This document shows, piece by piece, positions 51,817 to 64,000 of a stretch of DNA of 64,000 nt (positions within the stretch are counted from its first letter, which is position 1; every line of letters begins with the position of its first letter). The position numbers and the translations under genes are program-made. The stretch is from Haloplanus vescus (GTDB lineage: Archaea; Halobacteriota; Halobacteria; Halobacteriales; Haloferacaceae). The notes beneath the pieces are model-generated. The model had not been told where the DNA came from. It made no database searches and saw only the letters and a program-made list of their open reading frames with translations. The DNA is taken from contig NZ_FNQT01000001.1 of assembly GCF_900107665.1 (NCBI RefSeq), forward strand, positions 1,094,398-1,158,397, in the 5' to 3' direction.

Positions 51817-52326
51817 ATGGCGAGCTCCCCGAGCATTTCGTTTAGAAAACGCGAGGAGGCAGACGAGGTGTACCTGTTCCCCGTGTACCAGGAAAACGCG
51901 ACCTTGAACACGAAAAATTCTACGGTCATGGTGGAGGACCTCGATGAGGGTCGTGTGCGCGTAATCGCTGGAAATATTCCGGGCATGATTCGCTATTACG
52001 TAAATTATCCGGATGAGAGTGATGAGCAAAAGCAACGTGAGCATGCGTTTTCAGAGGAGCTTCTAGAGGAAGCGCTCGAGCGGTTATCCGAGTACGATCC
52101 GGAGACCAGCTACTCGGAAGCAAATTCAGGCAACAGGAGTATGAGAGACATCCACGTCGAGGTAGGCGAGGAGAAGCGCGATGAAGTCGTGATGCAGATG
52201 TGGAAGGTGCTCAACTGGCTCAAAGACGAGCACATCGAGTTCATGGAGGAGTATCGACCTGATGACGTTCGGGAACTGCCAACTCTTGAGGACGAAGTGC
52301 TGCGGATCAGCAAGCGTTTCGATTAA
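51817..52326 (+). CDS. element-borne protein of unknown function
   Basis: 169 residues from ATG 51817 (upstream in-frame start at 51769 less likely). A beta-rich N-terminal half (VYLFPVYQENATLNTKNSTV) precedes a helical, acidic C-terminus (MQMWKVLNWLKDEHIEFMEEY). No domain recognised. It follows the 50961 gene on the same strand with a 73-base gap, so it may share its transcript. Confidence 0.65.
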   Translation: MASSPSISFRKREEADEVYLFPVYQENATLNTKNSTVMVEDLDEGRVRVIAGNIPGMIRYYVNYPDESDEQKQREHAFSEELLEEALERLSEYDPETSYSEANSGNRSMRDIHVEVGEEKRDEVVMQMWKVLNWLKDEHIEFMEEYRPDDVRELPTLEDEVLRISKRFD

Positions 52327-52405
52327 TCCGTCCTATAGGAATTCTCGGGTATCGGTATACTCCTTTACAGGATAGTCTTATTTGGGATTGTTGAGCGCTG
52401 TACAT

Positions 52406-53335
52406 ATGGTCAGCGATTCTGGGTTACGAGTACTGTCGTGGAATGTACAGGGGGCGGTGCCGCCGAATGGGAGTATAGAACGAATCAAGAACCAAATCGA
52501 GTTTCTTGAGAAAGAGGTGAATCTCCCTGATGTGGTGATGCTGAATGAGGTGACGACGATTCAACGGGACTGTTGGCGGGAGTACCTGTTCGAAGTTGGG
52601 TATACAGATATTGTTGATACTTTGGAGTGGGCCGCTGAACTACGGGAAAGTACGGTACCGCCACACCAAGATTACAACCACGTGAATGGCAATCTTATCG
52701 CGTTGCATGAGTTGAGCGATGCGTCCGAACTGACCCGGTTGAGTCCGAGTATTCGGTACGGGCCATGGAAGAACGCTGATCTGAAGGACTGGGATACCAA
52801 TTTCCCTGAAAAAATTCTCAATGCCACGGTTACTCAGAATGGGAGTGAGATCGAACTATGGAATGTGCGTGCAGTCCCTGGCAGTATGCACGGTGAAGAG
52901 AAGATCAAGATTCTTGAGAATACGTACAACCGGATTATGAAGAGGCCTGAATCACCCTGCATTTTAGCGGGAGATTTCAATTCTCCAAAGGAGGAGTTGG
53001 CAGATGGGACGACTATTCCTTGGCGGCATGACCAGAAAGATGAGCTTGCTCAACGATGGGAGGAAGCGGAACTGAATATTCTCGTTGGGCTTGAGGAGAA
53101 GGGAATGGTCGACATCTTCCGATCACAACACGGCTACGGGGAAATCGATATTCTGGATGTGAGTCATGCCACGCAAACCGAACAGCCGGAATTAGTCGAT
53201 CCAGTCGAGGTTAAAGGCAAGAGATTCGACCATATGATTGCCTCCGAAGATCTCGATCCCCAAGACTGCTACTACGATCATGCGGGATTCAAATATAGTG
53301 ATCACGCTCCCCTCATCGCAGAATTCAATGTATAA
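52406..53335 (+). CDS. endonuclease/exonuclease/phosphatase-superfamily protein in the element
   Basis: 309 residues from ATG 52406. EEP motifs in order: VLSWNVQGAV (about 9-18), VVMLNEVTT with the metal Glu, ELWNVRAVPGSMHG, CILAGDFNSPKEEL, and the terminal YSDHAPLIAEF. No signal or anchor. Its role could be a nuclease of the element or of a defence system. Unlike the 11360 gene it is intracellular and AT-rich. Confidence 0.82.
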   Translation: MVSDSGLRVLSWNVQGAVPPNGSIERIKNQIEFLEKEVNLPDVVMLNEVTTIQRDCWREYLFEVGYTDIVDTLEWAAELRESTVPPHQDYNHVNGNLIALHELSDASELTRLSPSIRYGPWKNADLKDWDTNFPEKILNATVTQNGSEIELWNVRAVPGSMHGEEKIKILENTYNRIMKRPESPCILAGDFNSPKEELADGTTIPWRHDQKDELAQRWEEAELNILVGLEEKGMVDIFRSQHGYGEIDILDVSHATQTEQPELVDPVEVKGKRFDHMIASEDLDPQDCYYDHAGFKYSDHAPLIAEFNV

Positions 53336-53640
53336 TCGGCCAGATCTACACGCGCGTTGTATTCAATCCGAGCAGTGAGATCTGTCACGGACAGAGAAAT
53401 GACATCTGGAAGTTGTCGCGGTTGGATTCGCTTTTCTCCTCAATACTTCCTCGTTGGGGGAAGGGACCCGTTGATGTGTCTTCAGTTGAGTAGGGATTGA
53501 TTCCCGTAGGTCAGCAGTGGACGAAGAACACCGATTTCGCGCCAGCTCTGTCTCGAAATAGCTCCAATGATAGTCCTGTTAGCAGGTGAAATCTGAAAAC
53601 ACCCACCGGAATCTTATACTATTCTTGTGATGAACGGACT
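53336..53640. other. 305-base intergenic stretch without a gene
   Basis: No coding-like frame, tRNA or repeat is visible. The last ~35 bases contain TCTTATACTATTC, a TATA element for the gene starting at 53641, consistent with a leaderless transcript. Confidence 0.4.
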
Positions 53641-54153
53641 ATGACCGGTAATGCAGAAGCAGGACACCGAATACTTGAGATATTATATGAAGATCACTTT
53701 GGTGATGACGACACAAACCTGCAATCAGATGATATAGCTGGGAAGATTGACGGTGTTGATGAATCACAAGTGAAGCAGATTCTTGGAAATTTACATCAAG
53801 CGGATTTAGTAGGGAGGCCTACCCGAACACCCAAGCTCACTTCTGAAGGCATCAAAGTCGTTCTTGACCAGAAAGAGCGAGAGGAACGTCAAAATGAACG
53901 AGAGGAGCGAAAATTAGAGAGAGAAGAAAGACAAGAAGACCGAAAGCGCGAGATTCGAATTAACAAGAGCGTAGCTTATCTCACGATTGCACTTGTTCTC
54001 GCAGGTGGATTTCAAGGGGTTGCTCGTAATCTTGTGTACTTCTCTCCGAAGCAACGATTAATTTATTCTTTAGTTGGTGCAGTGGCTATATTTGGGGTCA
54101 CTCTTGTTTTTCTACTATATGTTAATTGGTGGGACAAAGGAGGAGAGACGTAG
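53641..54153 (+). CDS. winged-helix protein with coiled coil and two transmembrane helices
   Basis: 170 residues. Residues about 8-75 form a winged helix (HRILEILYEDHF, VKQILGNLHQADLVGR), followed by a highly charged coiled coil of Arg/Glu heptads (about 77-105) and two hydrophobic helices (KSVAYLTIALVLAGGFQGV and LIYSLVGAVAIFGVTLVFLL). The plan suggests a membrane-tethered regulator or effector. The next gene is also a small membrane protein of a type linked to nucleotide-signal defence. Confidence 0.75.
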   Translation: MTGNAEAGHRILEILYEDHFGDDDTNLQSDDIAGKIDGVDESQVKQILGNLHQADLVGRPTRTPKLTSEGIKVVLDQKEREERQNEREERKLEREERQEDRKREIRINKSVAYLTIALVLAGGFQGVARNLVYFSPKQRLIYSLVGAVAIFGVTLVFLLYVNWWDKGGET

Positions 54154-54368
54154 TCACCCCTATCACGGATTAGTCCCGAGTATCTTCTCAGTTAGTCCAT
54201 AGCTGCTTCAGAGGAAGCCATTTCTAAGGCGAAAATGCCCGCAAGAAAATCTGTTGAGTACGGAGACTCAAGCATTTGGGTAACGACCAAAGGATCAAGG
54301 AGATCAACGAGGAAGTGCTAAACAGTGATCTCGACAATTGATACGCAGCTTGCGTGATGTATGAAACT

Positions 54369-54965
54369 ATGGATGACACTACAGGTCGTAAGAACGTAGA
54401 TTGGAAGGCTCGTAGAAAGCTGTTCAACAAAGCTCTGGATCACCGAGGTTCGGTCTACTATACATACGAGCGAAACTAGTTTGCGGCCAAATACGTCGGT
54501 TGGCTTGGATGGATTCTCGACGGGGTTACCGCGCTATTCGGAGGCATACTCATCTACATCCTCCGAACGAATGCAAACACTCAGACTTCAGTATACCTGG
54601 CTATCGGAATTCTCTCGACATCCCTGATTAGCTCGTTCTACGGACCGAAATTGCGTTCCCGCGATTACTATCAGGCGGGACAAGAGCATCAGGAACTATA
54701 CGACGAGTTTGATCACTTCATCCACTTCGATATCGGCAATCCCAAATTGTCTAACGAGGATATCCGAGGAAGGTTAGAGGATCTGAATAACCGACGACAT
54801 CGACTTAATCAGTCAACTCCGCAGCTGGGTGGCATCTGGTATTACTCAATGAAAGGAGCAGGGAAGACGAAATGGGCGTACAGCAAACTGGTTCCGTGGA
54901 AGGAGGAAAGAGGATGGAGTAGTGAGGCGTACGAGGATGTCATCCCTGACGGGGTATCACTATAG
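54369..54965 (+). pseudogene. SLATT-like two-transmembrane effector gene with in-frame stop
   Basis: ATG 54369 opens KARRKLFNKALDHRGSVYY then TYERN, followed by TAG 54477-54479 and, in the same frame, FAAKYVGWLGWILDGVTALF, two hydrophobic helices, and the tail YQAGQEHQELYDEFDHFIH with N-NNRRHRLNQSTP. This order matches SLATT-type proteins, small pore-forming effectors of SMODS/SLOG nucleotide systems. The single TAG suggests a recent pseudogene (or a read error). The C-terminal 104 codons alone have an ATG at 54651. Confidence 0.6.
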
Positions 54966-55162
54966 ACTACTTGTTTGGCTGTTCCTGATAGTATGGATAC
55001 AGGAGCGTAATAGGGCAAATAGTACAGCTAGTGGTTAATACCGACAAGTGGAGCAGAAACCAGAACGCACTATCGGATTCCAGACAAATGCGTTAGTTTC
55101 GACAATATAACTCTTGATTACGTCAGATTAACTCGACCACCTACTCGGATCTATCTCCCATG

Positions 55163-55390
55163 CTAGATCCACTCGATTACTTTTGCGAGCTCGAAATTCT
55201 CCTAGGCTTCGGTAATCTTGATTTTGACGTTGTCACCAGGACGAGTATTTTCGACTTCAAATAGTGCTACTTTGTAGGCTTACCCTTGCTTCAGTAATCC
55301 GACCTCGATTTCTTTTCTGGGATCACTAAGACGTATAAATTGGCTTCTTGCTTTACCCTACTGGTGAATGTACTGAATCCAGAAAATCAA
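55163..55390 (-). pseudogene. decayed TRAM-domain-like gene fragment
   Basis: Minus-strand reading in one frame gives KEIEVGLLKQG, a stop, AYKVALFEVENTRPGDNVKI then KITEA, a stop, and ENFELAKVIEWI. The RPGDNVKIKIT block and the ENFxLAKV end are those of haloarchaeal TRAM-domain proteins. Two in-frame stops and a probable frameshift near 55350 show it is not functional. About 200 bases on either side (54966-55162 and up to about 55538) contain no other gene. Confidence 0.5.
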
Positions 55391-55538
55391 TCATCAGACT
55401 TTGATCACACCTTAAAACCGAAGAAAACATCGATAGGTTTCAAAATATCTTTTCGGCCGAGCAACCGTATCCATGAGATAGTACGCGCCGTAACTAAATC
55501 CAAGCAGAGTGGTTGAAACTGCCTTAGACGAATGGTGG

Positions 55539-55796
55539 TTAAGAAGAAAGACTCTCGTGAGGCATCGTTGAGGTATGACCAGGATACCACCAGACTACAC
55601 TCCGTCCACCGACTTTTTTCGATTTGAGTAATCCTCTCTCTTCAAGACTTTCTAAACGAGCCAACATTCCTCGACGCCCCATATTGAGTGCGTCTGAAAC
55701 TTCTGAAGCGGTTAATATCGGATCATCTGATCGCTTAAACACGTCAAGTATCTCTTCATCGCTCACATCGGGCTTGCGACCCGGCCCATCACTCAT
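55539..55796 (-). CDS. small winged-helix regulator
   Basis: 85 residues from ATG 55796. KPDVSDEEILDVFKRSDDPI followed by LTASEVSDALNMGRRGMLAR and LESLEERGLLKSKKVGGRSV form a winged helix of the MarR/ArsR-like haloarchaeal type. The C-terminus is short. It is divergent from the 55973 operon (176-base gap), so it could regulate it. Confidence 0.75.
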   Translation of the reverse strand: MSDGPGRKPDVSDEEILDVFKRSDDPILTASEVSDALNMGRRGMLARLESLEERGLLKSKKVGGRSVVWWYPGHTSTMPHESLSS

Positions 55797-55972
55797 CACC
55801 AAACGGGCAGTGAGGACATTTGTTAGGAATTCGCTCCTATGAAAGAAATAATTCCTACAAAGGAGTTAATTAGATGGCCATCTATCCTAGCGGCCCATGG
55901 TCGCTTGGCCAGCCACCCAGTCAAACTGGATTCAGGACAGTCTCTGTAGGATATTAGCTCCGAACAAGAGAA

Positions 55973-56353
55973 ATGGATGACGGGACTGAGTTTCTCTCGA
56001 TCCTCTATCATGCTCTCCGAGCTCCGAGACGTAGGCGAACGATCTGGCACGTAGCAACGAGTAAAGAAGCGGTTATTCCGATTCGACAACTGGCTCGTGA
56101 GATCGCAGCCGAAGAACTGAGAGTGCGGCCCGAGCTGGCGACAGGAGAACCGTACCGGAACGTGTACAACGCTCTTTCGCAGACACATCTGCCTACTCTT
56201 GCCGAGGCAGGCATCCTCATCTATGACCCCAAGCGCCAGACTATCTCTCGCGGAACGAATCTGGCTATCGCAGCCCTTCTAATTGCTACTAACGATGCAG
56301 CCGTGGAATCACTCGAACGGAGTAGTACACTTGGTGGTGAGAACATCCCATAG
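55973..56353 (+). CDS. haloarchaeal winged-helix (DUF7344-like) protein
   Basis: 126 residues. FLSILYHALRAPRRRRTIWH and VIPIRQLAREIAAEELRVRP, then VYNALSQTHLPTLAEAGILI and YDPKRQTISRG are the typical haloarchaeal HTH domain with the RRR-W start. It precedes the TFB paralogue by 3 bases and is therefore its operon partner; a role in controlling element excision genes is possible. Confidence 0.8.
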   Translation: MDDGTEFLSILYHALRAPRRRRTIWHVATSKEAVIPIRQLAREIAAEELRVRPELATGEPYRNVYNALSQTHLPTLAEAGILIYDPKRQTISRGTNLAIAALLIATNDAAVESLERSSTLGGENIP

Positions 56354-56356
56354 AGG

Positions 56357-57193
56357 ATGCAATCGGCGATTGATGATATACGGTGCGCGCCAGCTAGCGA
56401 GTATATGACGGAGTCACCGCTGACAGCCGATGAGAACGATAGCCTGGAGGGCTGTCCTCAGTGTGCTTCTGAAGCGATCTTAGAATCAGAGTTTGGACTC
56501 GATCCGGTCTGTGCATCCTGTGGCGTGGTTATCTCCGATGATCTTGATGAATCCACTTCAGATACATCTACCGAGGAGACTACACAGACTACAGAATCGT
56601 GGACAGACTATTCGAAGGTCACGAATAGCACCGAGAAGCACGTCGTCGACGCACTCCTCTGTTTGGAGCAAATTGGCGACGAACTTGGAGTCTCGAGTTC
56701 CGTTCGACAGGAAGCCGCGAAACTATACGGCGACGTCGCAATCGCAAATGCAACAGACGGTCGGCCGACGCCAGCCGTTATTGGTGCAGTCCTCGTCCTA
56801 GCATCACGGGACGGTGGGGTTCCAATTCCAATCCATCCGGTCGCTAAGGCGGCCGAGATTGATACGAAGTCACTCAAGCGACTAGTTCGGATTTTACCAG
56901 ACGAAATCGGCCACGAGACAGCCACAGCAGTCCCGAGAGATTATCTCACGTTCCTGCGCCAAGAGCTTAATCTCGATGGCGATACCGTCGCCACAGCACA
57001 CTACGTTTTGGAACAGGTCGTGAATACGGGCCGAGTATCGGGAGCAAACCCAGCTGGTGTAGCGGCTGCAGCAGTCTATTCAGCCTCAAAGAGAGATCTG
57101 ACTCAACGAGTAGTAGCGGATGCGGCTGGTATCTCAGTGGAGACAGTGCGTGTTCGTCTCTTGGACTGTCGAGCAGCAGTCTCGGATAGATGA
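56357..57193 (+). CDS. tfb: divergent transcription initiation factor TFB paralogue
   Basis: 278 residues (ATG 56405 is an alternative start). Zinc ribbon CPQCASEAILESEFGLDPVC-ASCG (about 34-58) followed by two cyclin repeats (about 85-180 and 185-275, VVDALLCLEQIGDELGVSS and VLEQVVNTGRVSGANPAG). The region between them is Ser/Thr/Glu-rich and lacks the conserved B-reader/B-linker sequence, so promoter opening ability may be lost or altered. It is tied by ATGA overlap to the recombinase. Confidence 0.85.
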   Translation: MQSAIDDIRCAPASEYMTESPLTADENDSLEGCPQCASEAILESEFGLDPVCASCGVVISDDLDESTSDTSTEETTQTTESWTDYSKVTNSTEKHVVDALLCLEQIGDELGVSSSVRQEAAKLYGDVAIANATDGRPTPAVIGAVLVLASRDGGVPIPIHPVAKAAEIDTKSLKRLVRILPDEIGHETATAVPRDYLTFLRQELNLDGDTVATAHYVLEQVVNTGRVSGANPAGVAAAAVYSASKRDLTQRVVADAAGISVETVRVRLLDCRAAVSDR

Positions 57194-58134
57194 GCGAAAA
57201 ACACGAAGCCTTGCTCAATCCACAGCAAGCGTTACTCAGTGGGGAGACAAAGGGAACTCAAGCAGCAATCTACGCACGAACGTCGTCGACGAGCCAGCGA
57301 TTTGGATATTCACTCGACGAGCAGGTTCGGCAGTGTGTAAGCCGCTGTAGAATGCTCGAATGGGATATTGTCTACGTCTTCCGAGATGAGGCTAAGAGCG
57401 GGAAAGATACAGATCGGCCGATGTTTCAGCAGATGCTGACTCAGGCTGAGAAGGGGGCCTTCGACGTCGTCGTCTTCTGGAAACTCGATCGCTTCTCGAG
57501 GAGCATTATGCACGCCGTACAGCTGGAGAAGAAGTTCCGGGACTGGAACGTCGCTCTTCACAGCGTGACCGAGCAGATCGACACGACGACGGCAGCTGGT
57601 AGATTCAATTTCCGAAATATCGCGAATGCCGCTGAGTTCGAACGCGAGCTCATCAAACAGCGGACAAAGATGGGGCACACTGCTCTCGCGATGGAACACA
57701 AGTGGCCGAACTCTACTCCACCGCTAGGTTATGAAAAGGCCTCTAACGGAAGGTTATCCGTAGTTGGAGGTGAATCAGCACTCGTTCGTTGGATCTTTGA
57801 AACATATCTTGAGGAGTGTTCAATGCCGGTTGTAGCTCAGTTGCTGAATCAACGCGGACAAACGACGAAAGACGGTAACAGCTGGAAATCCAACACTGTC
57901 GGTACAATACTACGAAATAAGCTCTATGCAGGCACATACAACGTAGGAAAGGTCCGAGAAGAAGTTCCAGAATATCAGATATTATCCCAAGAGAAATTCA
58001 ATGCTGTGACTAGCACTCGACGACGATTCCAGACAACAAATCCATCTGAGCGCCCCTCTATGTCCCGACCTCGTAAAAGGAGTCGAATCCAGAATGTATT
58101 AAACCGCTATTTTGATTTCCAAGATAGACAATGA
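57190..58134 (+). CDS. serine recombinase (resolvase/invertase family)
   Basis: 314 residues, ATG inside the TFB stop (ATGA). AAIYARTSSTSQRFGYSLDE holds the nucleophilic Ser; VVVFWKLDRFSRSIMHAVQL the catalytic Arg motif. The recombinase domain (PPLGYEKASNGRLSVV, NTVGTILRNKLYAGTYNVG) follows. It ends soon afterwards without the zinc ribbon and coiled coil of large serine integrases, so the C-terminus is short compared with the copy at 63254. Confidence 0.88.
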   Translation: MSEKHEALLNPQQALLSGETKGTQAAIYARTSSTSQRFGYSLDEQVRQCVSRCRMLEWDIVYVFRDEAKSGKDTDRPMFQQMLTQAEKGAFDVVVFWKLDRFSRSIMHAVQLEKKFRDWNVALHSVTEQIDTTTAAGRFNFRNIANAAEFERELIKQRTKMGHTALAMEHKWPNSTPPLGYEKASNGRLSVVGGESALVRWIFETYLEECSMPVVAQLLNQRGQTTKDGNSWKSNTVGTILRNKLYAGTYNVGKVREEVPEYQILSQEKFNAVTSTRRRFQTTNPSERPSMSRPRKRSRIQNVLNRYFDFQDRQ

Positions 58135-58258
58135 ATATATTACTGCGCAGGAAGATCGAGATCTCTCTAATAGGAGGAGAAGCATAATCTCGGCCTGTAG
58201 ATAGTCGTAAGAATTATAATAAGATATTTGCATTTTCGCCTATAACCTACTTCTAGAG

Positions 58259-58702
58259 ATGAGCATCTGGCGAACGAAACGGCGATATGAAGAAAATCGC
58301 CGTTTCAACGAGCGTGCAGATACTGCGCTCTTAGCCATAGGTATGCTCAGGAATGAGGAAGAAGGTCTTACTGTATCTTGGAGTGAAGAGGAGCTCCGTT
58401 CACAGCTTAGAGAGGGAAGAAAACTTCTTGAAGAGGTGAGGAATGCTCTAAGTGACCCGGAATCATCTGAGGACTATATTTACGCACTCTCACAACGACT
58501 TTGTGATCATTGGAGAATTACTCCATCGAAAGCAGAGGCTCGATTAGCGGAGAATATCAATATACTTGAGAGAGCATCAGAGGAACTGACGGCTGTTGAG
58601 GGGTTATCAGAAGCTGAGAAAACTTTATTCGATATCCACGAAATTGCTGGACAAGCTTCGGAATCAGAGTCCGAGAAATTCAGGGATAAGCTTGTCAATT
58701 GA
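58259..58702 (+). CDS. helical protein upstream of and overlapping the metallopeptidase gene
   Basis: 147 residues. Soluble, charged, all-helical prediction, with EEELRSQLREGRKLLEEVRN and ARLAENINILERASEELTAV. No known domain. Its last codons overlap the in-frame TTG (58692) of the metallopeptidase gene. The sequence continues smoothly in character into the next frame (EKFRDKL then SIELSLERKVRIDE), so a single gene with one frameshift is the alternative. Confidence 0.6.
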   Translation: MSIWRTKRRYEENRRFNERADTALLAIGMLRNEEEGLTVSWSEEELRSQLREGRKLLEEVRNALSDPESSEDYIYALSQRLCDHWRITPSKAEARLAENINILERASEELTAVEGLSEAEKTLFDIHEIAGQASESESEKFRDKLVN

Positions 58703-59798
58703 ACTATCGCTTGAGCGGAAGGTACGCATTGACGAACAAATTTCTCATCTGGAGGATTGCGTCTCTGAATTAGATCTCAACGGGGAACATCCGATCACAC
58801 AGCTGGTAGATCAAATAAATGAAGCACAATCCAAAGCAGAGCGCCGGCAATTGGCTCTTGAAGAAACTGTAGAACAATCTCCAACAGAAGAACAGCTTCG
58901 TAGGGTTTACACACCGTATCTCAACTATTTAAATAATGTTGAATCCCGAGTAGAAGATCTCCAGCACGCAGTCGTATATTTTGCAGTTAATGAGATGCAG
59001 CACCAGGGAGACGGTGCTCGTCTCCGATATACACAGTCTGTATGTGATGAACTAAACAAGCGATTTCAAATTGAGGCAGAATATCTCCCAGTCATTTGGT
59101 CAGCATATGCAGCGTTCGATATTGTGCGGAAAGATTTCTATGCAATCCACATTCCCAGAGATAATAGGCCGATATTGGGGGCTCCGATCCTCGGACATGA
59201 ACTAGGCCACGCAGTCGCAGATCATTTGCAGCGAGAAGATAAGAGAAATTTCCAGAGAAGAGTGGAATCTCTTGCCTCAGAATTTAAACCACGCCAAAGA
59301 GAGATCGTTCGTACTGCATGGAGAGAGTGGTTTTACGAGCTTCTATGTGATGCGTGTGGGGCACTCACTTTCGGTCCAGCATATTTGGTTATATTAACTC
59401 GACGATTATTGTCCTCTTATCCTCATAATCTTCCGGAAGGGATTGCTGGAACCGAGCATCCTCCTGATGAGTTAAGATATAGATTCGTGAGGCAATTATT
59501 AGATCAACGACTGGCCGATTGGGAGATGGATGTATTGGATAGGCATATCTCTAATTTTGACCAACATTTGGAAATCTCTAAAGAATCTAAGCCTACTGAG
59601 TACGATGATTGGATTGACCCAGAAATCCTATCAATTATTGAAACAATTTCTCTCGACTATATTAATCTGGACATTAAAGAATTAATGGAGGAAACTCTCG
59701 GAGAGAGTGAAATCTCTCCCTGCCGGTCACGACGGATAGAGGTGAATAAGCATATATTGGGCATCAAAACGGCGGATAAGATAGAGGAATACCACTAG
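58692..59798 (+). CDS. HExxH zinc metallopeptidase-like protein next to the Argonaute
   Basis: 368 residues from TTG 58692 (a TTG at 58596 is further upstream but runs through the previous gene's frame; no ATG is available). N-terminal ~100 residues form a coiled coil (KVRIDEQISHLEDCVSELD). The zincin site is ILGHELGHAVADHLQ at about 166-180, with a candidate third ligand Glu about 48 residues downstream in WFYELLCDACGALTFG. There is no signal peptide. It converges on, and overlaps by 35 bases, the Argonaute gene. Confidence 0.7.
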   Translation: MSIELSLERKVRIDEQISHLEDCVSELDLNGEHPITQLVDQINEAQSKAERRQLALEETVEQSPTEEQLRRVYTPYLNYLNNVESRVEDLQHAVVYFAVNEMQHQGDGARLRYTQSVCDELNKRFQIEAEYLPVIWSAYAAFDIVRKDFYAIHIPRDNRPILGAPILGHELGHAVADHLQREDKRNFQRRVESLASEFKPRQREIVRTAWREWFYELLCDACGALTFGPAYLVILTRRLLSSYPHNLPEGIAGTEHPPDELRYRFVRQLLDQRLADWEMDVLDRHISNFDQHLEISKESKPTEYDDWIDPEILSIIETISLDYINLDIKELMEETLGESEISPCRSRRIEVNKHILGIKTADKIEEYH

Positions 59799-61962
59799 AG
59801 AGAATATCGTGCATTTGAGACGGGAGTTGGGTCGTTAGGGGATGTTTCATTTTCATCATTGGAGACCCCCAATTGAGGAAGGATAATTTAAACACATCAG
59901 AGGCAATTCCTTCTACAGAGATATCTCCGTTATCAACCGAAACTGAACAGTGCAATGGTGATGGAGATCCTTGATGTATCTCCGGCTTCCCATAGGTGCT
60001 TACAATAACATTCTGTGAGTCCAATCTCATAGCTGCGCCAGTCTCACAAGTTCGGTTTCCTGTATCCGAATACAACCGGTGACCAGAACTTTCAGATATT
60101 TCAATAGCCTGCCAATCAAAGGAACCGTTAATGTGGCCACTATCCTGTAATTCAGAGATACCGTCTCTGATTCCGTCAATTTCTGCATCACCAAACTGTC
60201 CGTTCCGGTGGATAATGAGAGACTGAGGGTCTTCGATCAATCCCCGATCAATCGCTTCTGCTATTAATTGCCGTACTATCCTTCGAGAGACCTCGAAATT
60301 AGTGACGGTACTCGATCCAGTAGCCAAGTTATTGGTAGTTTGATGGATGAGGTCACCATTTGATCCAGATATCAAAACTGCAGCAGCGCTATTGACCTCA
60401 TCACCCGTTACACTCATACCGAGATACAGATCGGCCTCCAGTGGAGACGACAATAAGAAAGGTCGAGTCCCAATCTTCGTGGCTAAGCCACAGACGACAT
60501 TGTATAGTGAGTTGCTAAAGCCGTCAGATCCGAACGACTCACGATATGTTTTAAGTTGAATAGCTTGTGCAGGAAGCCCATCAAGTTCAGCTAGTATATC
60601 ATGGTACTCCTCAGAATGGCTGTCTAAGAGAACGATAACTCCATCAGAATTAGACCTATGCCGTCGAATCCATTCACGTAATTCTTGATAGTCTTGATGA
60701 GATACCGTCCCCGGGCGGTCCTGAATAGTAATGCCGACGTACTCGTTGGCGTATGACTGGAGTTTATCAAACATTTCGAGAGCGGTATCTTCTCGGCCAT
60801 CCGGATGAAGGAGATCTATTTGTGCGGCTCCACGATGTTTTGAAACGGGGCCGAATTCTTCTAAATAATCTCGTAGGACGTATCGCCAATTTCTCTCATG
60901 GATAATCTGATCTGGTTCTATCGCATTATTTTGTCCAGGGACCATCTCATTTCCACCACCGAACTGTAGCGGCGGATAATTAAGCGAAAAACTACCATCC
61001 TGGCGAGGACTATCCGATACGGGGCACTTCGTGTTGAAAACTTGAATATAGTTAATATCCTGCGCAAATCTCTCTGTATCTCCCCACCTACTACGAGATG
61101 ATCGTGACGCATACCCGGTCATCGAAGGTTCGATTTCCTCAGGATGGGGATGGAGTAATGACGGTGCAGAATCAACCGGTTCATCGCTCCAATAAAACTG
61201 TATGCGTGCAAGAGGTTCGGAAGGATCGACACGTTCTGCCTGCTCATCTGAGTAATTGTCATTGTTTTGTATATATTCATATACAGATGTATCCTCACCA
61301 TCAAGAGTCATAGTTTTGTCAGATACAGACAAGTCATCTGCAATCGAAACCAGCTCAACCGTGTGGCGATCATTCGACATCAAAGTACAGTTCCGATCCA
61401 ATAGGAGGTTCTCAACTTTCTTCGAGCCAAATTTTTTCAAATAGTCATATACTGATAGGTCTGAGATGAACTTAACTGTCGGATCAATCGTCAAGTAGTA
61501 TCCGTCGTTAAATTCGATAGAAGTACTATACCCGTGATATGTGTCGTATCCATCGACAATATCGGAGGGGTTCCACTCATAGAATCTTTGACTGTTCCCT
61601 AATTCCCAGTAATCCAGCTGGGTCGTTACGAACCACCCTAGTGAATCTCGAAGAGATTGTATCACAGCTTCCTGATATTTCCCAGATTCGCCTCCTACAG
61701 TCGTATCCCCAATTTTGGTTAATTCTGTTCCATCATTCGTTGTTACACTTGGTTTGGAGTCGTGGGAACCTATGGATAATATGTACCACTTCCCATCCTC
61801 ATTAATTCGCTGAGCAGATCCACTACACTCTGATTTTATGGCTCGTTCATAGTTGTCCAGCTGTTTCCAGGGATCACTGCTCGAAGGCTGAGGATCAATA
61901 CTATATTTTGCTGCAGAAAGTTTCGGAACCTCAATCTCGAACGAATTTGCGAATAGAGCCAT
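59764..61962 (-). CDS. catalytically inactive long prokaryotic Argonaute
   Basis: 732 residues, close to long Argonautes. The MID-domain guide pocket is visible as PAQAIQLKTY and NVVCGLATKIGTRPF (about 464-505). The PIWI domain follows: LYLGMSVTGDE (512-522) has Ser517 where the first catalytic Asp belongs; LIIHRNGQFG (582-591) has Asn587 where the HRDG Asp belongs; the end QGSPSPLHCSVSV...LSFLNWGS...HPLTTQLPS is typical. Guide binding is likely retained and target cutting lost. The N-terminal ~300 residues do not show recognisable PAZ. A TATA box (ATTTAAATT, about 61988-61996) supports the ATG 61962. Confidence 0.9.
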   Translation of the reverse strand: MALFANSFEIEVPKLSAAKYSIDPQPSSSDPWKQLDNYERAIKSECSGSAQRINEDGKWYILSIGSHDSKPSVTTNDGTELTKIGDTTVGGESGKYQEAVIQSLRDSLGWFVTTQLDYWELGNSQRFYEWNPSDIVDGYDTYHGYSTSIEFNDGYYLTIDPTVKFISDLSVYDYLKKFGSKKVENLLLDRNCTLMSNDRHTVELVSIADDLSVSDKTMTLDGEDTSVYEYIQNNDNYSDEQAERVDPSEPLARIQFYWSDEPVDSAPSLLHPHPEEIEPSMTGYASRSSRSRWGDTERFAQDINYIQVFNTKCPVSDSPRQDGSFSLNYPPLQFGGGNEMVPGQNNAIEPDQIIHERNWRYVLRDYLEEFGPVSKHRGAAQIDLLHPDGREDTALEMFDKLQSYANEYVGITIQDRPGTVSHQDYQELREWIRRHRSNSDGVIVLLDSHSEEYHDILAELDGLPAQAIQLKTYRESFGSDGFSNSLYNVVCGLATKIGTRPFLLSSPLEADLYLGMSVTGDEVNSAAAVLISGSNGDLIHQTTNNLATGSSTVTNFEVSRRIVRQLIAEAIDRGLIEDPQSLIIHRNGQFGDAEIDGIRDGISELQDSGHINGSFDWQAIEISESSGHRLYSDTGNRTCETGAAMRLDSQNVIVSTYGKPEIHQGSPSPLHCSVSVDNGDISVEGIASDVFKLSFLNWGSPMMKMKHPLTTQLPSQMHDILSSGIPLSYPPF

Positions 61963-62511
61963 TATCTGTTAAATAGTATACTACAATTTAAATCCAAGCC
62001 TGAATATCGCTTCCTATACTCGTATGTTCAAACACGACAGATATCTTCTGAAATAGTTGTAGAGGAAGGACGAGTGCTCCCCTCTCGATGACACCATTGA
62101 GAATCCGACGTCACAACCAGTCGACGTCGTTCGCAGCGTGAGGAAATAGGCACATCTCCTCACTCCTCACGCGGGGCCCAGAAGACGACTGAAATGGATT
62201 CACTACGTAACTCAGAGAAGACAGGACGCCCCGTAGACTCCCCAATGAGTTCTGGTTTGACGTCCTGTGTAGGGGTAACCCTACAATTACACTGGAATGG
62301 GCATAGTATAAAAAAATCAGTTTGTGAAACCACCTCAAGGAGTGAGCGTCGATAGTATTATTCACCACCGGCCAGCACCACAAAGCGTTCCGTTCTTAGC
62401 CAGTCGTGGCAGCCTCTGTCGCTCTTATCGGTCGGTGAAGGTAGCGTGCGTTACACCGATACACTGTCGCGTAGAGTATCTGTCGCGACTGGTGAGACCG
62501 GGGACTCAGCA
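61963..62511. other. 549-base intergenic region with hairpins and no clear gene
   Basis: The first ~40 bases hold the Argonaute promoter (minus strand). Then a CGTGAGGA...TCCTCACG inverted repeat (about 62140-62174) and a TGTAGGG-GTAA-CCCTACA hairpin (62265-62282) are visible. The rest has short coding-like debris but no complete gene. Confidence 0.4.
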
Positions 62512-62823
62512 ATGACCGAAAACGAAATGCCTCCAATGGCGTCACTGGTACCGCTGATTGATCGTCTTCGTGAAATCGCCGATGAAGAAATTCCGCACCC
62601 CCAAACACTCGAAACCAGGGTATGGGAGGATGGGGACTACCAGATCCGCATCTTCCACAACGGACCAGCAAAAGAACAGATTATGTATAAGCCAGAGATG
62701 GAAAATCCGGTGTGGCAACGTCTGAAGGGGCGGTCAGAAGGATTCACAGAAGACGCCAGTGAATATGGTGAAATCCTCGAACTCGACTACGAAGAGCGGG
62801 AAGAGCGGCAGATAGAGTGGTAA
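62512..62823 (+). CDS. small acidic protein of unknown function in the element
   Basis: 103 residues from ATG 62512 (the frame opens 22 codons earlier, but the upstream part is Arg/Ser-rich and non-coding-like). MASLVPLIDRLREIADEEIP and YQIRIFHNGPAKEQIMYKPE, then an acidic tail DASEYGEILELDYEEREERQ. No domain recognised. Composition fits haloarchaeal proteins, so it is probably real. Confidence 0.65.
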   Translation: MTENEMPPMASLVPLIDRLREIADEEIPHPQTLETRVWEDGDYQIRIFHNGPAKEQIMYKPEMENPVWQRLKGRSEGFTEDASEYGEILELDYEEREERQIEW

Positions 62824-63253
62824 GAGCGCAGGAGTTAGCCCGCAAATAGCAACCTATCTGGTTCGACAGCTACTTGACCGCTACGACGGTTCGATTGATC
62901 TCGTCGATTTGATCGCGGAGATATGCGGTGATGCGGTGTGCGACATCCTCGATCATTAGTAGTCTGTCGAGGGAGCCGAATATAGACTTCTCGACAGAGT
63001 AAAACAGGGTTATCCACCCCATCCTGAGAAGGATAACTAAGTGATGTCACAACACCAATTTCGCCAGCGGTGATAGTTTTATTATAGATTGTATTCACTC
63101 CCAGAACGGGCATCGGGACTCCGTGACGCAGTCCGGAAGCCCATCAGCCAGAGGGAGATTTTGACACCCCTTTCCCCCCTCATTCCTCTCTCCCTCTCTC
63201 GCTGATTGAGATATACCTCCGAAGAACGCCCAGCGAGCGTCTCGGTCTAGGGA
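62824..63253. other. 430-base region with coding debris
   Basis: Directly after the 62512 gene, one plus-strand frame reads ATYLVRQLLDRYDGSIDLVD then LIAEICGDAVCDILDH and stops at 62959, but it has no start codon; it looks like the end of a lost gene. The remainder shows no gene. CT-rich tracts (CTCCCTCTCTC) occur near 63190. Confidence 0.35.
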
Positions 63254-64000
63254 CTATGAAACAGATTCTCGAAGTTGGCTCAGTTCGTTTTCAGTCGGGA
63301 ATTTTCGCTGTCGACCGCACTCAGTACACTTGTAATTGTGAACAGTACGGTCCGTAAGCGTCCGCTGACCGTTCTTCACGACGTCGCCACCACAGTCCAT
63401 GCAGTGCAACTGCGCCATCTCACACGAATCGACGACGGGCTCAAGTCCAAACTCGGCCACCACATCTTCGAGACCATCTGGACTATCCGACTCACCGGAA
63501 TCTGTCGAATACCGTTCCTGGATTACCTCGATTTTCTTTTGAACGCGCTCGAAGAGTTCCTCCTCAACGATCTGCAGATCGCTATCCTCGACGAAGACAC
63601 GCTCACCCGTTTCGGGATGCTCGGCATCAATTCCAGGCTTGCCGATATATACCCGGTTTTGGAGGAGTCGCTTCAGAGCGTGTGAACTCGAGGGAGAGTA
63701 GCCCGCAACACGGGCCTCCGTCGCACTGTACGCGCCCTGGATATCGACCTCAAGAAACGTCTCAAAGAGCCGGAGAACAGTTTCGACCTCGGACGAATCA
63801 ACTGCCAACCAATCGTCGTCCACGTACTGGTAGCCAAGAGGTGCGGAACTGTAGAACGCAGACCAATTCTTCCGACTGAATTGCTCAATCCGTCCCATCC
63901 GAGCGCGTCGTGCGCGGGTTTCGTTCGATCGTTGTGACATCAACGTATCGAGCACTATAGGCACAAGATCCTCGAACTTCGAGACATCCAATTCACCCGA
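63254..64000 (-). CDS. serine recombinase, large form with zinc ribbon (N-terminus beyond window)
   Basis: The frame remains open to the right edge (the ATG near 63991 is internal), so the catalytic domain lies outside. Visible are the end of the resolvase region (FEDLVPIVLDTLMSQRSNET), the recombinase domain (WSAFYSSAPLGYQYVDDD and HALKRLLQNRVYIGKPGID), a coiled coil, and a C-terminal zinc ribbon CMDCGGDVVKNG...CTECG. This is the large serine integrase plan. Position at the far side of the element is what an integrase next to an attachment site would show. Confidence 0.85.
   Translation of the reverse strand, partial: SGELDVSKFEDLVPIVLDTLMSQRSNETRARRARMGRIEQFSRKNWSAFYSSAPLGYQYVDDDWLAVDSSEVETVLRLFETFLEVDIQGAYSATEARVAGYSPSSSHALKRLLQNRVYIGKPGIDAEHPETGERVFVEDSDLQIVEEELFERVQKKIEVIQERYSTDSGESDSPDGLEDVVAEFGLEPVVDSCEMAQLHCMDCGGDVVKNGQRTLTDRTVHNYKCTECGRQRKFPTENELSQLRESVS

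What the first reader, a model, noticed from the sequence alone, without database searches (positions are those of the whole stretch)
58259..61962. Argonaute paired with a HExxH metallopeptidase: candidate protease-armed Argonaute defence system
An inactive Argonaute converges with, and overlaps by 35 bases, a gene whose product carries HELGH plus a downstream Glu about 48 residues away, behind a coiled-coil N-terminus and a helical upstream protein. Effectors described for inactive Argonautes are nucleases, membrane proteins and NAD-consuming enzymes; I know of none that is a protease. The convergent, not co-directional, order is unusual for a two-component system.
Basis: inference. Interest (0 to 1): 0.85.

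Follow-up and report, generated by a model that had tools for sequence, protein, structure and literature searches.

The report
Argonaute paired with a conserved metallopeptidase
In salt-loving archaea, and in several unrelated bacteria, an Argonaute gene (a nucleic-acid-guided immune protein) is always found next to genes for a small helical protein and a zinc peptidase, which suggests a guided immune system whose partner enzyme cuts proteins; in the papers I could search, no such partner has been described for an Argonaute.

Summary
The peptidase gene (58692-59798, +) and the catalytically dead long Argonaute (61962-59764, -) are real, convergent and overlap by 35 nt. A third gene, a 147-aa helical protein at 58259-58702, belongs to the unit. 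In 391 haloarchaeal genomes the peptidase and this Argonaute clade occur in the same 11 genomes, always adjacent. All 15 intact haloarchaeal loci keep the order helical > peptidase >< Argonaute, with TTG as the inferred peptidase start inside the end of the helical gene. The two protein trees share 16 of 18 splits. A distant archaeon and five bacterial plasmids (Rhizobium, Runella, Spirosoma, Emticicia, a cyanobacterium) carry a co-directional version: Cas4-like nuclease > Argonaute > helical > peptidase. These are the operons of the DNA-guided, RNA-cleaving 'D-R' Argonautes (PliAgo/PnyAgo groups, including RslAgo). The paper that defined them named the nuclease and regulators but no protease. 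The peptidase is an M48-like gluzincin (HExxH...ExxCD...HP[PA]..R), below every Pfam cut-off. Best reading: an Argonaute-gated peptidase acting in defence. Linkage is near certain; activity, substrate and direction of control are inferred. New variant of a known kind.

The parts
58259..58702 (+). Gene A: 147-aa all-helical protein (predicted five-helix bundle), possible adaptor or inhibitor
   Evidence: Homologue in all 15 intact haloarchaeal loci, 20-59% identity to this copy; MSxWR-type N-terminus (T for S in some); AF2 pLDDT 90; dN/dS 0.05-0.20; no Pfam, PADLOC or NCBIfam family
58692..59798 (+). Gene B: 368-aa M48-like gluzincin metallopeptidase with helical N-terminal part (residues 3-125) and catalytic part (about 130-300)
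   Evidence: Invariant H169 E170 H173 D177 W213 E216 C219 D220 G223 and HPPxxxR at 256-262 in 15 haloarchaeal sequences; HExxH, ExxCD and HP[PA]..R kept in six distant relatives; AF2 pLDDT 91.5; BepA, 3c37 and ZMPSTE24 among structural matches
58692..58702 (+). Overlap of the gene A stop with the TTG start of gene B (11 nt), suggesting translational coupling
   Evidence: Same TTG position by alignment and an 8-20 nt overlap in 15 of 15 loci; start codon inferred, and annotated at the same place in most plasmid records
59196..59210 (+). HELGH zinc-binding motif
   Evidence: Invariant HExxH
59337..59351 (+). ELLCD: predicted third zinc ligand Glu216, and Asp220
   Evidence: E216, C219 and D220 invariant
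59457..59477 (+). HPPDELR motif, resembling the HPxxxR region of M48 peptidases and a possible histidine switch
   Evidence: H256, P257, P258 and R262 invariant in haloarchaea; HP and R invariant in the six others; BepA His-246 switch in PMC8423444
59764..61962 (-). Gene C: 732-aa long-type Argonaute with inactive PIWI
   Evidence: Pfam Piwi; PADLOC PprPIWI model E 7e-93 over 2-724; hmmsearch against VbAgo 1.8e-46 and PliAgo entries 3e-37; profile comparison with D-R pAgos E 4e-46
60412..60414 (-). Ser517 at the first catalytic Asp position of PIWI
   Evidence: Alignment with bacterial relatives that have GID/GVD
60202..60204 (-). Asn587 (HRNG) at the catalytic RDG Asp position
   Evidence: Alignment with bacterial relatives that have RDG
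59764..59798 (.). 35-nt convergent overlap of genes B and C
   Evidence: other haloarchaeal loci range from a 20-nt overlap to a 1-nt gap, most often a 4-nt overlap, plus one with an insertion

Best explanation
The three genes encode an Argonaute-gated peptidase module that most likely acts in defence against mobile elements. Shown here: genes A (helical bundle), B (M48-like gluzincin) and C (long Argonaute) form one co-inherited unit in haloarchaea, and a related Argonaute-helical-peptidase operon occurs in bacteria and another archaeal class. Inferred: the Argonaute, loaded with short guides, is the sensor; AddAB-like or Cas4-like nucleases, frequent neighbours, may supply guides. Since bacterial relatives are DNA-guided and RNA-targeting, the target may be invader transcripts. 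Target binding is relayed, probably through gene A's product, to the peptidase. The peptidase is held off beforehand, either by A or by a BepA-like histidine switch in the HPP motif, and once released cuts cellular or invader proteins, leading to growth arrest or loss of the invader. In bacteria the Argonaute also cuts the RNA; in haloarchaea that cutting is lost, leaving sensing plus proteolysis.
For: Co-occurrence in the same 11 of 391 genomes, always adjacent. Identical A>B><C architecture in 15 loci with a conserved overlap. On plasmids, 6 of 6 haloarchaeal and 5 of 5 bacterial peptidases sit beside an Argonaute. Co-directional Argonaute-A-B operons. Trees share 16 of 18 splits, distance r 0.96. 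Peptidase homology between the haloarchaeal and other sets: 98.6%, E 7e-16. Invariant metallopeptidase residues. PIWI tetrad lost in haloarchaea. Purifying selection. Neighbours include type I restriction, an Mrr-like nuclease, a CBASS-type phospholipase and a SIR2 gene. AddAB components near 10 of 15 haloarchaeal loci. RslAgo and relatives are DNA-guided RNA nucleases (PMC9360449). Target-activated proteases partnered with guided effectors have precedent in Craspase (PMC9729208).
Against: No activity, substrate, complex or immunity data. Bacterial relatives keep an active PIWI and a separate nuclease, so the peptidase need not be the effector. The convergent haloarchaeal order separates Argonaute transcription from A-B. 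Small-protein homology between haloarchaea and bacteria is not established by sequence (21%, E 0.001). Only some loci have clear defence neighbours, and the window's own is bounded by recombinases.
Confidence: 0.5

Rival explanations
1. Regulatory protease: B works like an ImmA-type anti-repressor protease. On a signal from the Argonaute it cuts a transcription regulator and induces the operon or a mobile element, rather than killing the cell or the invader.
For: Bacterial operons begin with an HTH regulator (Rhizobium, Runella) or a sigma-70 factor plus a small protein (Spirosoma, Emticicia). A TFB gene lies near four haloarchaeal loci including the window. Weak sub-threshold M78/IrrE similarity over residues 123-198 (16.1 of 22 bits).
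Against: No regulator gene is constant across haloarchaeal loci. TFB genes are common in haloarchaea (own knowledge). The HPP..R motif and the structure matches point to M48 rather than M78.
Confidence: 0.2
2. Pro-enzyme activation: the peptidase cuts and switches on a nuclease, as trypsin-like and caspase proteases do in Hachiman, AVAST and canu systems. Here the nuclease would be the Cas4-like or AddAB-like enzyme, or the Argonaute itself.
For: A PD-(D/E)XK nuclease is in every bacterial operon and AddAB parts are near 10 of 15 haloarchaeal loci. Precedent in PMC12799240.
Against: The window and four other haloarchaeal loci have no such nuclease in the stretch examined; in this genome the PDDEXK_1 genes lie elsewhere. 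No gating insertion was searched for.
Confidence: 0.12
3. A-B is a self-contained toxin-antitoxin-like pair (A inhibits peptidase B) that guards the Argonaute or stabilises the mobile element; Argonaute loss rather than target recognition releases B.
For: Small helical gene first, overlapping the peptidase start in 15 of 15 haloarchaeal loci; plasmid location of many copies; both B and C are broken in one Halosimplex copy while A is intact.
Against: The Argonaute is never missing, although a plain toxin-antitoxin pair would often stand alone; in bacteria the Argonaute comes first in the same operon.
Confidence: 0.13
4. Neighbours by coincidence or hitch-hiking, without joint function.
For: Loci lie in mobile, recombinase-rich surroundings.
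Against: 11 of 11 genomes, 16 of 18 shared tree splits, and two gene orders across Bacteria and Archaea.
Confidence: 0.02

Closest known systems
D-R pAgo operons (PliAgo and PnyAgo groups; RslAgo of Runella), Lisitskaya et al. 2022, PMC9360449; PADLOC 'Class II' pAgo with Cas4-like nuclease
   Same: Homologous Argonaute (hhalign E 4e-46) and homologous peptidase at the operon end; the Runella plasmid operon found here is the RslAgo operon
   Different: Haloarchaeal Argonautes lack the catalytic tetrad; convergent order; Cas4-like gene absent or replaced by AddAB-like neighbours. The paper names nuclease, HTH and sigma factor but not the peptidase or the helical gene
Long-B pAgo systems BPAN, BPAS, BPAM (PMC10620215)
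   Same: Inactive long Argonaute with a separate partner gene
   Different: Partners there are a nuclease, a Sir2 NADase or a membrane protein; here a metallopeptidase plus a helical protein
APAP systems of haloarchaea (long-A pAgo with PLD nuclease, PMC11442185)
   Same: Haloarchaeal Argonaute with an associated enzyme
   Different: That Argonaute is active and paired with a phospholipase-D family nuclease
Craspase (type III-E gRAMP with TPR-CHAT, PMC9729208)
   Same: Working idea: nucleic-acid-guided effector switching on a separate protease
   Different: CRISPR effector and caspase-like cysteine protease; no homology claimed
M48 peptidases (BepA, ZMPSTE24, 3c37)
   Same: HExxH, Glu third ligand in an ExxxD motif, downstream HP..R, partial fold match
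   Different: Below the Pfam M48 cut-off; soluble helical N-terminal extension instead of the TPR domain of BepA or the transmembrane helices of ZMPSTE24
Nuclease-protease pairs in Hachiman, AVAST and canu (PMC12799240)
   Same: Protease integrated in an antiviral system, sometimes with a nuclease neighbour
   Different: Trypsin-like or caspase proteases; no Argonaute sensor

Membership tests
Argonaute (long type) | PIWI domain over the Pfam cut-off | tested here: met
   30.5 bits against cut-off 28.9; PADLOC pAgo models
Argonaute (long type) | N-terminal half with N/PAZ regions, not a short MID-PIWI protein | tested here: met
   Profile aligns over residues 86-714 to full-length VbAgo and over 696 columns to D-R pAgos; domains not modelled singly
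D-R pAgo (PliAgo/PnyAgo) system | Homologous Argonaute with intact catalytic tetrad | tested here: not met
   Window has S517 and N587 at two Asp positions; both Asp lost in 13 of 15 haloarchaeal copies, the RDG Asp lost in the other two
D-R pAgo (PliAgo/PnyAgo) system | Cas4-like PD-(D/E)XK gene directly upstream of the Argonaute | tested here: not met
   Absent in the window; own-genome PDDEXK_1 genes are far away
D-R pAgo (PliAgo/PnyAgo) system | DNA guide and RNA target preference | not testable with these tools
   Needs biochemistry
Long-B pAgo with known effector (BPAN/BPAS/BPAM) | Partner is RecB-like nuclease, Sir2 or membrane protein | tested here: not met
   Partner is a HExxH peptidase and a helical protein
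Peptidase family M48 | HExxH with a third Glu ligand and Asp in ExxxD | tested here: met
   Invariant H169 E170 H173 E216 D220, kept in distant relatives
Peptidase family M48 | Pfam PF01435 over curated cut-off | tested here: not met
   12.3 bits against 20.3
Peptidase family M48 | Shared fold of the catalytic domain | tested here: inconclusive
   BepA Z 7.9 (164 aligned, rmsd 5.1), 3c37 Z 7.4, ZMPSTE24 Z 6.6; Z below 8 in a largely helical model; no Foldseek hit at E<0.001
Peptidase family M78 (ImmA/IrrE) | Pfam PF06114 over curated cut-off | tested here: not met
   16.1 bits against 22; 1 of 15 members matches at E 0.01
Anti-phage defence system | Restriction of virus or plasmid in vivo | not testable with these tools
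   Only genomic context supports it

The most novel reading that the evidence does not exclude
A conserved Argonaute-gated proteolytic immune system present in Bacteria and Archaea: guide-directed target recognition by an Argonaute switches on a dedicated M48-like peptidase through a small helical relay, and in haloarchaea the Argonaute has given up cutting altogether.
Probability: 0.45. Interest if true: 0.92.

Novelty: new variant of a known kind. Interest (0 to 1): 0.78.

Why it matters
Argonaute systems are known to act through nucleases, NAD-consuming enzymes and membrane proteins. A conserved peptidase partner would add proteolysis to that list and give a counterpart to CRISPR-guided proteases. 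It also bears on a stated open question, the natural function of the DNA-guided RNA-cutting Argonautes (PMC9360449): their operons carry a homologous peptidase gene, so purified RslAgo with its two neighbours could be tested directly.

Tried and rejected
Single-sequence search of genome contigs found nothing; the profile search found 6 loci, all haloarchaeal. Viral contigs and phage records hold no relatives of the queried families. Peptidase profiles find no solved relative by sequence. Foldseek gave no significant PDB match for the peptidase or the helical protein. FliS-like hits for the helical protein (Z up to 8.9) are within noise for helical bundles and are not used. A weak peptidase hit in G064 (E 1.7e-4) matches only query residues 20-120, the helical part, in a 209-aa ORF and was rejected. 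Comparison with a nearby M48-annotated haloarchaeal protein gave nothing. Sampling bacteria genome-wide failed because only handles from this phylum were available, so bacterial statistics rest on plasmids. The meaning of PADLOC's 'PprPIWI' label could not be found. The last paper search was too broad to be informative on peptidases. Considered and rejected: coincidence; a plain M78 anti-repressor; a protease that simply replaces the lost PIWI nuclease, because active Argonautes have it too.
Full report
OBSERVATION. Gene A is 58259-58702 (+), gene B (peptidase) 58692-59798 (+), gene C (Argonaute) 61962-59764 (-). B and C overlap by 35 nt at their 3' ends. B contains HELGH at residues 169-173 and a Glu 46 residues after the motif's own Glu (E216, in WFYELLCD). 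C has a Pfam Piwi match but Ser and Asn at two catalytic Asp positions.

RECURRENCE. In the PLSDB plasmids the peptidase has six homologues, all haloarchaeal, and each record also holds a full-length relative of the Argonaute. In 391 haloarchaeal genomes the peptidase was found in 11, apart from one 101-residue hit to its helical part only (G064), and the Argonaute clade (E below 1e-90) in the same 11; another 11 genomes with only remote Argonautes had no peptidase. A profile scan of GTDB contigs added no orphan peptidase. In 15 loci read in full the order is A > B >< C, with one insertion-split example in Natrinema. In all 15 the aligned start of B is a TTG inside the 3' end of A (8-20 nt overlap). 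That start is inferred by alignment, and most plasmid annotations agree.

BEYOND HALOARCHAEA. A genome of another class in the phylum (G554) has Argonaute > small helical > peptidase in one direction, behind a PD-(D/E)XK gene and beside a type I restriction locus. With its peptidase as query, four bacterial plasmids came out, then a fifth: Rhizobium, Runella, Spirosoma, Emticicia and a cyanobacterium. All have Cas4-like nuclease > Argonaute > small helical > peptidase. Among plasmids, the five records with a near-full-length relative of the Rhizobium Argonaute are the same five that hold the peptidase. Peptidase homology between the two sets is well supported (98.6%, E 7e-16), as is Argonaute homology (E 4e-46). 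The small proteins match in position and approximate size and look helical, but sequence homology is not shown.

CO-INHERITANCE. Argonaute and peptidase trees share 16 of 18 splits; their distances correlate at 0.96 overall and 0.92 within haloarchaea, where none of 5000 permutations reached it. All three genes are under purifying selection in the measurable pairs. In one of two Halosimplex copies both B and C are broken.

THE PEPTIDASE. Invariant in haloarchaea: H169, E170, H173, D177, W213, E216, C219, D220, G223, GP and Y231, H256 P257 P258, R262. HExxH, ExxCD and HP[PA]..R persist in the six others. No Pfam family passes its cut-off. AlphaFold2 gives pLDDT 91.5: a three-helix N-terminal part and a mixed catalytic part. 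Among structure matches that cover the catalytic part are BepA (Z 7.9), 3c37 (Z 7.4) and ZMPSTE24 (Z 6.6), which I know as M48 peptidases, plus Zmp1, but these values are not decisive. In BepA a histidine downstream of the third ligand binds zinc and acts as an on/off switch (PMC8423444); E201 to H246 is 45 residues there and E216 to H256 is 40 here. That the HPP motif does the same here is an inference.

THE ARGONAUTE. The six non-haloarchaeal relatives keep D, E, D, D at invariant positions (570, 604, 637, 762 in G554's protein). Their closest solved structures include PliAgo (identified through PMC9360449), and the Runella protein is, by organism and operon, RslAgo of that paper, a DNA-guided RNA nuclease. 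Haloarchaeal copies lost both Asp in 13 of 15 cases and the RDG Asp in the other two. So the pairing is older than, or independent of, PIWI inactivation.

CONTEXT. AddAB-like helicase-nuclease parts lie near 10 of 15 haloarchaeal loci, often directly upstream of A; the host genome has six PDDEXK_1 matches in 2.8 Mb, none by the module. Other neighbours include a type I restriction enzyme, an Mrr-like nuclease, a phospholipase of CBASS type and a SIR2 protein. The window's copy lies in a low-GC stretch (0.43-0.53 against about 0.65-0.70) between two serine-recombinase genes.

LITERATURE. [quoted passage not shown] it does not use the word protease at all and its discussion treats only the nuclease. 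The surveys PMC2743648 and PMC6299218 and the long-B paper PMC10620215 do not mention a peptidase partner. PADLOC has no model for A or B. The library lacks most subscription papers and all preprints, so an unseen report is possible.

MECHANISM AND VERDICT. Shown: a conserved Argonaute-helical-peptidase unit with intact metallopeptidase residues. Inferred: the Argonaute senses, A relays or restrains, B cuts. I put 0.5 on an Argonaute-gated peptidase acting in defence. The main rivals are a regulatory protease, a pro-nuclease activator and an A-B inhibitor pair. It is a new variant of pAgo systems rather than a new kind.

Noticed in passing
57190-58134 (+) and 63254-64000 (-): Serine recombinase genes flank the module within a low-GC stretch (about 52000-64000) of an otherwise 65-70% GC window, suggesting an acquired element.
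   Followed up: partly
55973-57193 (+): A DUF7344 gene and a TFB-like transcription factor gene lie tightly before the recombinase and the module; TFB genes are near four haloarchaeal loci, and two Bacteroidota operons start with a sigma-70 factor.
   Followed up: partly
L035, L039, L040, L041, L042, L043, L044, L047, L049, L050: AddA- or AddB-like (UvrD, PDDEXK_1) genes near the module in 10 of 15 haloarchaeal loci, often immediately upstream and co-directional with gene A.
   Followed up: partly
L051 8406-12102 and L057 5406-8999: Halosimplex aquaticum plasmid carries two copies of the module; in one, both the peptidase and the Argonaute are split by frame changes while the helical gene is intact.
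   Followed up: partly
L069 8225-10404; L070 1-1215: Multiubiquitin and ThiF-like genes lie beside the Runella and Spirosoma operons (a ubiquitin-like cluster).
   Followed up: no
L048 1-8286; L051 199-8141: A shared cluster (M48 protease, TIGR02391, AAA ATPase, DNA clamp and others) precedes the module in two different haloarchaeal plasmids.
   Followed up: no
52382-53335 (+): An exonuclease III/endonuclease-phosphatase family protein in the same low-GC stretch.
   Followed up: no
59764-61962 (-): PADLOC-DB has a model named PprPIWI that matches this Argonaute best (E 7e-93); no description or paper for that name was found.
   Followed up: partly
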